Source: Candidatus Methanoperedens sp.
GTDB taxonomy: Archaea > Halobacteriota > Methanosarcinia > Methanosarcinales > Methanoperedenaceae
Direction of reading: 5' to 3'
NCBI GenBank assembly: GCA_023249105.1
Contig: JAHFDG010000043.1
Location: 1-34,791, forward strand
Length of the DNA stretch: 34,791 nucleotides
A program made the translations under genes and the position numbers. Positions 13,306 through 14,959 of the stretch are shown piece after piece (position 1 is the first letter of the stretch; every line of letters starts with the position of its first letter). Below the pieces are notes generated by a model. The model worked only from the letters and a program-made list of their open reading frames with translations. It was not told the origin of the DNA and searched no databases.

Positions 13306-13905
13306 ATGAGGAAAAAACATCTTGAGATGCTGCTTGAGGGGCTCAAAGGCTTTGAGTCCCCAAAGCCGGAAAGGGAGCAGTACTCCACGCCAGCGACAGT
13401 TGCTTCTGAGCTATTGCATTTTGCTTTCATGCGGGGGGACCTTGTTGATACCGTATACGACCTTGGGTGCGGCGGGGGAATACTTGCAATCGGGGCAAAA
13501 CTCCTTGGAGCAGAAAAGGTTATAGGTTTTGATGATGATAAAGAAGTTCTTGAGATTGCACGGGCAAATGCAAAGAGACTTGGCGCAGATGTCGAGTTCG
13601 TATGCAGCCGCATCGAAAATATTTGCGGAAAAGCGCATGCCGTTGTAATGAATCCACCGTTTGGCGCACAGGTTAAAGGAAGCGACCGCCCTTTTTTGAG
13701 GAAAGCCCTCGAAGTAAGCAGCGTGGTTTATTCCATACATAATGCCGGAAGTCTGGAATTCATAAAAAAATTCATTAGCCCATCGGTCATAACAGAGTAT
13801 CAATTAATTGATTTTCCTATAAAGAGGACATTCAGGTTCCATACAAAGGATATTAAGGTCATAAAAGTTGAGATATACAGGATTGAGAAACGAATAGAGG
13901 GATAG
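13306..13905 (+). CDS. METTL5-like N6-adenine RNA methyltransferase
   Basis: This 199-residue methyltransferase has motif I VYDLGCGGGILAIGA (about 49-63), an acidic loop GFDDDKEVLEIA, and the catalytic VVMNPPFGAQ (NPPF, about 112-115) of N6-adenine methylases. Length and architecture fit the archaeal COG2263 family related to METTL5, which methylates small-subunit rRNA. That specific target is inference. It follows the upstream methyltransferase by one base. Its stop lies beside the unusual Csl4 start region. Confidence 0.85.
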   Translation: MRKKHLEMLLEGLKGFESPKPEREQYSTPATVASELLHFAFMRGDLVDTVYDLGCGGGILAIGAKLLGAEKVIGFDDDKEVLEIARANAKRLGADVEFVCSRIENICGKAHAVVMNPPFGAQVKGSDRPFLRKALEVSSVVYSIHNAGSLEFIKKFISPSVITEYQLIDFPIKRTFRFHTKDIKVIKVEIYRIEKRIEG

Positions 13906-13907
13906 TT

Positions 13908-14672
13908 ATTAGAATTAAAAGAAAGAAAATAACAAGCAGGAGAAAGCTTGGGAAAAGCGACGCTGAGGGGCCCAAAGATGTAAAGGAAAGCGAGCTTGAG
14001 CTGGAAGAAGAAATAGAAGAAGTCCATGAGGCTGGAGAAGAGACAGAAAACCCGGAGCAGCTAGAACAGCCTGAGCAGCCTCCAGAAGAAGCCCCCAGGG
14101 AAGAACCGGAGGAGAAAACAAGAGCTGTTTTACCCGGAGACCTTATTGGGACTTCAGAAGAATATTCGCCGAGAAACGGAACGTATGTGGATAAAGGGAA
14201 TATTTACGCTACAGCCAGCGGAATTGTTAAGATAAACACAAAGGACAGGTCTATTTCAGTTATTCCGGTCACCAATACGCCACCGCATATACAGGTAGGC
14301 GATATCGTAATAGGTCAGGTTACAGATGTAAAAGATTCAGTTGCACTGGTTGAGATTGCCGGGATAAAGGGAAAGGGAGAGCGGGAGATTGTCAATGCAG
14401 ACCAGGCAGCCATTCATGTTTCAAACGTAAAGGATGCGTACGTGAAAGAATTATACTATGAATTTGCCCCGTTTGACATCGTTAAAGCCAGGGTTATTGA
14501 CCTTCGGAATATGCGTCTCACTACGGTAGATAAAGAACTCGGGGTCATGAAAGCCTATTGCGGCAATTGCAGGGCAGTGTTGAAAATCGATAACGGTAAA
14601 CTTAAATGTCCTAAATGTGAAAGAACAGAGACAAGAAAAATATCCTCGGATTACGGGACAGGAATTGTTTAG
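13908..14672 (+). CDS. csl4: Exosome RNA-binding protein Csl4, non-canonical start
   Basis: Csl4 forms part of the cap of the archaeal RNA exosome. The core is clear: VLPGDLIGTSEEYSP N-terminal domain (from about 14127), an S1 domain, and a zinc ribbon with C-x2-C pairs (CGNC, CPKC) ending KISSDYGTG. The frame stays open upstream to the end of the methylase gene, yet holds no ATG, GTG or TTG between 13902 and the GTG at 14187. Starting at 14187 would delete the conserved PGDLIG block. An AGAGGGA site six bases before ATT at 13908 makes ATT a candidate start. The leading 75 residues would be basic, then very Glu/Pro-rich. The start remains uncertain. Confidence 0.85.
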   Translation: MRIKRKKITSRRKLGKSDAEGPKDVKESELELEEEIEEVHEAGEETENPEQLEQPEQPPEEAPREEPEEKTRAVLPGDLIGTSEEYSPRNGTYVDKGNIYATASGIVKINTKDRSISVIPVTNTPPHIQVGDIVIGQVTDVKDSVALVEIAGIKGKGEREIVNADQAAIHVSNVKDAYVKELYYEFAPFDIVKARVIDLRNMRLTTVDKELGVMKAYCGNCRAVLKIDNGKLKCPKCERTETRKISSDYGTGIV

Positions 14673-14680
14673 GTGATATT

Positions 14681-14959
14681 ATGGAACTTACAATCCTCAA
14701 TAAGACAGAAAATGAAATAAATATCAAAGTGACAGGTGAAACGCATACCATGCTCAATATCTTAAAGACTGCTTTACTGAATAACAAGCATGTCGAGATG
14801 GCAACGTATGATATAAAACATCCAACAATCAGCGAACCTGTGCTTTTTGTGAGGACAGATGGCGCAGACCCGGTTGATGTGATTAAAAAAGCATCCAAGG
14901 AAATTGTCAAGGAATGCGACGAGTTTATTAAATTATTTACTAAGAAGACGAAGGGTTAA
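14681..14959 (+). CDS. rpoL: DNA-directed RNA polymerase subunit L (Rpo11)
   Basis: This 92-residue protein matches archaeal Rpo11, which pairs with subunit D in the polymerase assembly platform. The conserved block ETHTMLNILKTALLNNKHVEMATYDIKHP (about 21-49) and the following LFVRTDGADPVDVIKKA fit the alpha-like dimerisation fold. A GGTGAT site precedes the ATG, and Csl4 ends eight bases upstream. The csl4-rpoL order is common in euryarchaea. The 3' end overlaps the convergent DUF2240 gene by 20 bp. Confidence 0.95.
   Translation: MELTILNKTENEINIKVTGETHTMLNILKTALLNNKHVEMATYDIKHPTISEPVLFVRTDGADPVDVIKKASKEIVKECDEFIKLFTKKTKG

What the first reader, a model, noticed from the sequence alone, without database searches (positions are those of the whole stretch)
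13902..14190. Csl4 lacks any ATG, GTG or TTG start for its conserved N-terminus
The frame is open from the end of the methylase gene to the Csl4 core, but the first usual start codon (GTG 14187) falls inside the conserved domain. AGAGGGA lies six bases before an ATT at 13908. Initiation at ATT, a coupled frameshift from the upstream gene, or a sequence error are the choices. The added N-terminal region would be basic, then Glu/Pro-rich.
Basis: seen in the sequence. Interest (0 to 1): 0.6.

Follow-up and report, generated by a model that had tools for sequence, protein, structure and literature searches.

The report
Conserved AUU start in archaeal Csl4
In a whole order of methane-cycling archaea the gene for the RNA-exosome subunit Csl4 almost certainly begins translation at the very unusual codon AUU instead of AUG, and this odd start has been kept in more than 90 distinct sequences, so it is not an error and may serve to control how much of the protein is made.

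Summary
The Csl4 frame (13887-14672) has no ATG, GTG or TTG before GTG 14187, which lies inside the Csl4 N-terminal domain. The window is from a Ca. Methanoperedens genome. In 115 distinct loci from the same order (five families), 94 have ATT at this codon, 3 have ATC, and 11 keep ATT with an ATG one codon upstream; six have ATG and one TTG at the same codon. The upstream Shine-Dalgarno GAGGGAT is nearly invariant. A phylogenetic footprint shows GAGGGAT fixed, a variable 4-nt spacer, ATT fixed, then three-base coding periodicity. In a third of loci an in-frame TGA overlaps the Shine-Dalgarno, so the frame cannot begin upstream. Frameshifting from the methylase gene is excluded: that gene ends at variable distances in all three frames and is not detected in two families. 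Sequencing error is excluded by the many independent genomes. The start yields a basic-then-acidic N-terminal extension found in this order and one sister family. It works like infC (AUU) or sigR (GUC). Regulation by aIF1 is inferred, not shown.

The parts
13897..13903 (+). Shine-Dalgarno GAGGGAT; pairs with the 16S 3' end (CACCUCC) through GAGG plus GAU with one bulged rRNA base
   Evidence: 16S 3' end found in this genome; duplex energy -8.3 kcal/mol with the bulge; 0-2 substitutions per position on the tree of 94 sequences
13904..13907 (+). variable 4-nt spacer (AGTT here)
   Evidence: 6-18 substitutions per position
13908..13910 (+). AUU start codon of csl4
   Evidence: ATT 94, ATC 3, ATG 6, TTG 1 at this codon, plus 11 with ATG one codon upstream, of 115 distinct loci; 0/0/2 substitutions
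13908..14672 (+). csl4 as proposed: 254 codons plus stop
   Evidence: Pfam ECR1_N; NCBIfam NF034126 exosome Csl4, 216.9 bits against cut-off 90; PDB 2ba1
13908..14120 (+). N-terminal extension: conserved basic head (MRI-K/R...SRRKL) then E/P-rich linker of variable length
   Evidence: mostly absent outside the order
14121..14672 (+). conserved Csl4 core: N-terminal domain, S1, zinc ribbon
   Evidence: alignment to A. fulgidus Csl4
14187..14189 (+). GTG, first usual start codon; inside the N-terminal domain and not the real start
13306..13905 (+). upstream methylase ORF (METTL5-like by my reading); its end overlaps the csl4 Shine-Dalgarno
14681..14959 (+). downstream RNA polymerase subunit L gene
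   Evidence: Pfam PF13656

Best explanation
Csl4 is translated from AUU at 13908, guided by the Shine-Dalgarno GAGGGAU (seven bases between its GAGG core and the AUU), with initiator Met-tRNA reading AUU as in bacterial infC (the tRNA step is inferred). The start was probably already present in the common ancestor of the order and has been kept, with two or three lineages switching to a usual start at the same codon or one codon upstream. The most likely reason is a deliberately weak initiation rate that can be tuned by the initiation machinery, above all aIF1, which discriminates against non-canonical starts; this would set the amount of Csl4 relative to Rrp4 on the exosome cap. Shown here: the location of the start and its conservation. 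Inferred: weak initiation, aIF1 control and the purpose. The confidence given is for the AUU start itself; for the regulatory purpose it is about 0.3.
For: Footprint on a tree of 94 sequences: GAGGGAT 0-2 changes per position, spacer 6-18, ATT 0/0/2, then mostly 10-22 at third positions against fewer at first and second positions, a coding period that begins right after ATT. The Ile/Leu codon two codons later is ATT only 13 times, ATC 31, ATA 42, so ATT is not kept merely as Ile. In 33 of 99 loci the Shine-Dalgarno itself makes an in-frame TGA (tGAGGG), leaving only GGG-ATH-NNN-ATT as possible first codons. The third base of the start codon changed 5 times, against 24-38 changes at ten fourfold sites of the same gene. 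Natural replacements fall on the same spot: ATG at the same distance from the Shine-Dalgarno in six genomes of one genus, TTG at the same codon in one genome, ATG one codon upstream in 11 loci of another clade. The 23-nt motif is found in 99 of 186 order genomes once or twice each, at csl4 positions wherever compared; the reversed control pattern gives none. The anti-Shine-Dalgarno is present. aIF1 discriminates against non-canonical starts in archaea (PMC6237735, PMC8211752).
Against: No protein or ribosome data were seen. About five T-to-G changes would be expected neutrally at a site that is always T (my estimate), and one or two were seen, so selection against AUG itself is only weakly supported. 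Some relatives have an ATG a few codons in (L002, L003, L006), and L008, L013, L014 have a TTG just upstream of the Shine-Dalgarno, but these are not conserved. Nothing here tests aIF1 control.
Confidence: 0.9

Rival explanations
1. Ribosomes reach the Csl4 frame by a programmed frameshift from the upstream methylase gene or from a small upstream ORF.
For: In the window the methylase ORF overlaps the site and its stop is 2 nt from ATT. In most loci the -1 frame has a stop that overlaps the ATTAG.
Against: 33 of 99 loci have no ATG/GTG/TTG-opened frame reading into the site in either other frame. The methylase stop lies from 10 nt past to more than 600 nt before ATT, in all three frames, and no methylase was found upstream in two families. 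Six genomes have ATT-CGN, which removes the other-frame stop. The codon before ATT can be anything.
Confidence: 0.02
2. Sequence or assembly error that destroyed an ATG.
For: The window comes from an assembly in 134 contigs.
Against: The same ATT occurs in 94 distinct sequences of five families, several in single-contig genomes.
Confidence: 0.005
3. The real start is GTG 14187 or another internal usual codon, and the upstream frame is open by chance.
For: Gene callers that know only ATG, GTG and TTG would choose it.
Against: GTG 14187 cuts into the solved N-terminal domain. The upstream part has codon-periodic substitution and a conserved basic head. Internal usual starts differ in position from species to species and are absent in some.
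Confidence: 0.02
4. AUU is the start, but it is a neutral relic: initiation from a strong Shine-Dalgarno is good enough and there is no regulation.
For: The extended Shine-Dalgarno could compensate for the codon. T-to-G conversion is only modestly below my neutral estimate.
Against: Starts other than AUG tend to be replaced by AUG (PMC5622118). No change of the third base to A was seen and few to C, where many would be expected.
Confidence: 0.4

Closest known systems
infC (IF3) AUU start, Escherichia coli and other bacteria
   Same: A conserved AUU start in a housekeeping RNA-machinery gene; the initiation factor that polices starts represses it (PMC5472188 and references there).
   Different: infC encodes the policing factor itself, so the loop is autoregulatory. 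Csl4 is an exosome subunit, and archaea use aIF1 instead of IF3.
sigR GUC start, Streptomyces
   Same: A non-canonical start with a strong, highly conserved ribosome-binding site, conserved across one taxon (32 of 34 species), in a gene that is not an initiation factor (PMC5472188).
   Different: Different codon; bacterial; repression by IF3 shown experimentally. Here only sequence evidence.
AtubA of a Kariarchaeaceae MAG, proposed ATT start
   Same: An archaeal gene with a proposed ATT start and a suitable ribosome-binding site (PMC13394414).
   Different: One gene in one genome there, inferred from the fold; here order-wide conservation with a footprint.
Archaeal Csl4 (A. fulgidus, PDB 2ba1)
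   Same: Core N-terminal domain, S1 and zinc ribbon.
   Different: A. fulgidus Csl4 has no N-terminal extension; most relatives sampled outside the order have a usual start near the core.

Membership tests
Archaeal exosome subunit Csl4 | NCBIfam equivalog NF034126 over its cut-off | tested here: met
   216.9 bits, cut-off 90
Archaeal exosome subunit Csl4 | Full N-terminal domain present in the translated product | tested here: met
   Residue 79 of the frame aligns to residue 2 of PDB 2ba1, provided translation starts upstream of GTG 14187
Genes with a conserved non-canonical start codon (infC, sigR type) | Start codon other than ATG/GTG/TTG with a Shine-Dalgarno at normal spacing | tested here: met
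   GAGG, 7 nt, ATT; anti-Shine-Dalgarno present
Genes with a conserved non-canonical start codon (infC, sigR type) | Conserved across a taxon | tested here: met
Genes with a conserved non-canonical start codon (infC, sigR type) | Repressed by the start-codon fidelity factor | not testable with these tools
   aIF1 is present in the genome; no expression data
infC autoregulation | Gene product is the fidelity factor itself | tested here: not met
   The product is Csl4
Programmed frameshift gene | A conserved usual-start ORF in another frame that reads into the site | tested here: not met
   Absent in 33 of 99 loci; upstream gene end variable

The most novel reading that the evidence does not exclude
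An archaeal counterpart of infC-type control: the AUU start makes Csl4 output depend on initiation stringency (aIF1 level or ribosome state), coupling the make-up of the RNA-degrading exosome to translation initiation throughout this order.
Probability: 0.3. Interest if true: 0.8.

Novelty: new variant of a known kind. Interest (0 to 1): 0.62.

Why it matters
I found no report of a taxon-wide conserved AUU start in archaea in the searchable papers. If true, csl4 is probably annotated with a wrong start in much of this order, the protein has an unstudied N-terminal extension, and there is a natural substrate for testing start-codon fidelity by aIF1 in vivo, with AUU, AUC, AUG and UUG variants at the same codon already provided by evolution.

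Tried and rejected
A first motif scan used a wrong offset and was redone. A structured RNA element was not modelled: flanks beyond the Shine-Dalgarno are not conserved. Readthrough of the TGA that overlaps the Shine-Dalgarno was rejected because the codon there is AGA, CGA or TGA in different species and the frame upstream of it differs. Coupling to the methylase stop is possible in some Methanoperedens genomes (stop 2 or 10 nt before ATT) but is not general. The tree is FastTree on short, partly incomplete cores with many open forks, so the counts of changes are approximate.

Full report
What is there. The window lies in a 3.28-Mb archaeal genome whose nearest named relatives are Ca. Methanoperedens. 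The frame 13887-14672 encodes Csl4 (Pfam ECR1_N; NCBIfam Csl4 equivalog; A. fulgidus Csl4 structure). It lies between a methylase gene and the RNA polymerase subunit L gene. The first usual start codon, GTG 14187, is residue 101 of the frame and falls inside the N-terminal domain, which aligns from residue 79. Among 273 long ORFs in 283 kb of this genome no other has so long a stretch without a usual start.

Relatives. Matches to Csl4 were found in 57 of 60 near relatives and 195 of 200 genomes of the class. DNA around the site was read from these and further order members. The site reads GAGGGAT-N4-ATT-AGR-ATH in most. Over 115 distinct loci with an assigned start the codon is ATT in 94, ATC in 3, ATG in 6 and TTG in 1; 11 more have ATT preceded directly by ATG. 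The last group is one clade, which includes a genome whose contig length (5,751,492) is that of Methanosarcina acetivorans as I remember it (not tested). In the genus with ATG at the codon itself, the ATG stands at the same distance from the Shine-Dalgarno. Two loci of another family in the class (L160, L161) also have GAGGGAT followed by an ATT and a similar basic head, though with a GTG four codons upstream, so AUU may be older than the order.

Why ATT is the start. First, in 33 of 99 loci the base before GAGGG is T, so the Shine-Dalgarno itself contains an in-frame TGA. There the frame can begin only at GGG, ATH, the next codon or ATT, and the codon before ATT is unconstrained (Val, Ile, Leu, Pro, His, Gly, Asn and others). 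Second, substitutions counted on a tree of 94 sequences give 0-2 changes at each GAGGGAT position, 6-18 in the spacer, 0, 0 and 2 in ATT, and then high counts mainly at third positions, starting with the codon after ATT. Upstream of the Shine-Dalgarno the counts are 12-25. This is the footprint of a ribosome-binding site, a start codon and a coding sequence. Third, the next Ile codon of the protein uses ATT, ATC and ATA freely (13, 31, 42), and fourfold sites of the same gene changed 24-38 times against 5 for the third base of the start. Fourth, lineages with a usual start have it at this codon or one codon upstream. The 16S 3' end carries CACCTCC, and GAGGGAU pairs with it as GAGG plus GAU around a bulge, -8.3 kcal/mol, which would explain why GAU is conserved too.

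Alternatives. A frameshift from another frame is impossible in 33 of 99 loci, where no ATG, GTG or TTG opens either other frame into the site. The methylase stop is anywhere from 10 nt past to over 600 nt before ATT, in all three frames, and no methylase was found upstream in two families. A sequencing error cannot recur in five families and in single-contig genomes.

Meaning. The start adds a head of the type MRI(K/R)...SRRKL followed by an acidic linker of very variable length, seen in this order and one sister family and lacking in the other relatives sampled. Its function was not tested; RNA or partner binding by the basic head is a guess. AUU starts are exceptionally rare: among about 69,000 reconstructed ancestral starts two switched to AUU (PMC5622118). 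The best studied non-canonical starts, infC AUU and sigR GUC, put a gene under the fidelity factor IF3 (PMC5472188). Archaeal aIF1 does the corresponding job (PMC6237735, PMC8211752), and one aIF1 gene was found in this genome. I therefore think weak, tunable initiation the likeliest single reason, but only the start itself is supported by data. Neutral T-to-G change would have produced roughly five AUG at this site by my estimate, and one or two were seen, which hints at but does not prove selection for AUU over AUG.

Novelty. Paper searches found one proposed single ATT start in an Asgard archaeon (PMC13394414) and no conserved archaeal case. I call this a new variant of a known kind.

Noticed in passing
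L159:17870-18000 (own genome C21, leuA), and L190-L240: The 2-isopropylmalate synthase gene (NF002085) also lacks a usual start before its conserved FDTTLRDGEQ in 24 of 45 distinct loci. In all 45 a small ORF opened by ATG/GTG/TTG in the -1 frame reads ...RDR(F/L)L.. into the leader, with Arg codons CGT/CGC/CGA/CGG, and usually stops 0-4 codons later. This may be a programmed +1 frameshift or a leader peptide with reinitiation; it extends beyond the order.
   Followed up: partly
L110, L124, L125 and L182-L187: The Csl4 extension is expanded into low-complexity repeats in some genera: SRDQFKGQ-like in the clade with ATG one codon upstream, and RG/RD-rich, over 150 codons long, in the genus with ATG at the start codon.
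   Followed up: no
G238:C9:158286-158827: In one genome of the phylum Csl4 is hit in two overlapping pieces, the upstream one with an in-frame TAG; pseudogene, frameshift or assembly error not resolved.
   Followed up: no
G005:C105:59099, G018:C49:24801, G020:C102:42313, G207:C18 and C79: Four genomes hold two copies of the csl4 start motif; the protein search shows short or partial csl4 pieces at some of them, perhaps contig-end duplicates or strain mixtures.
   Followed up: no
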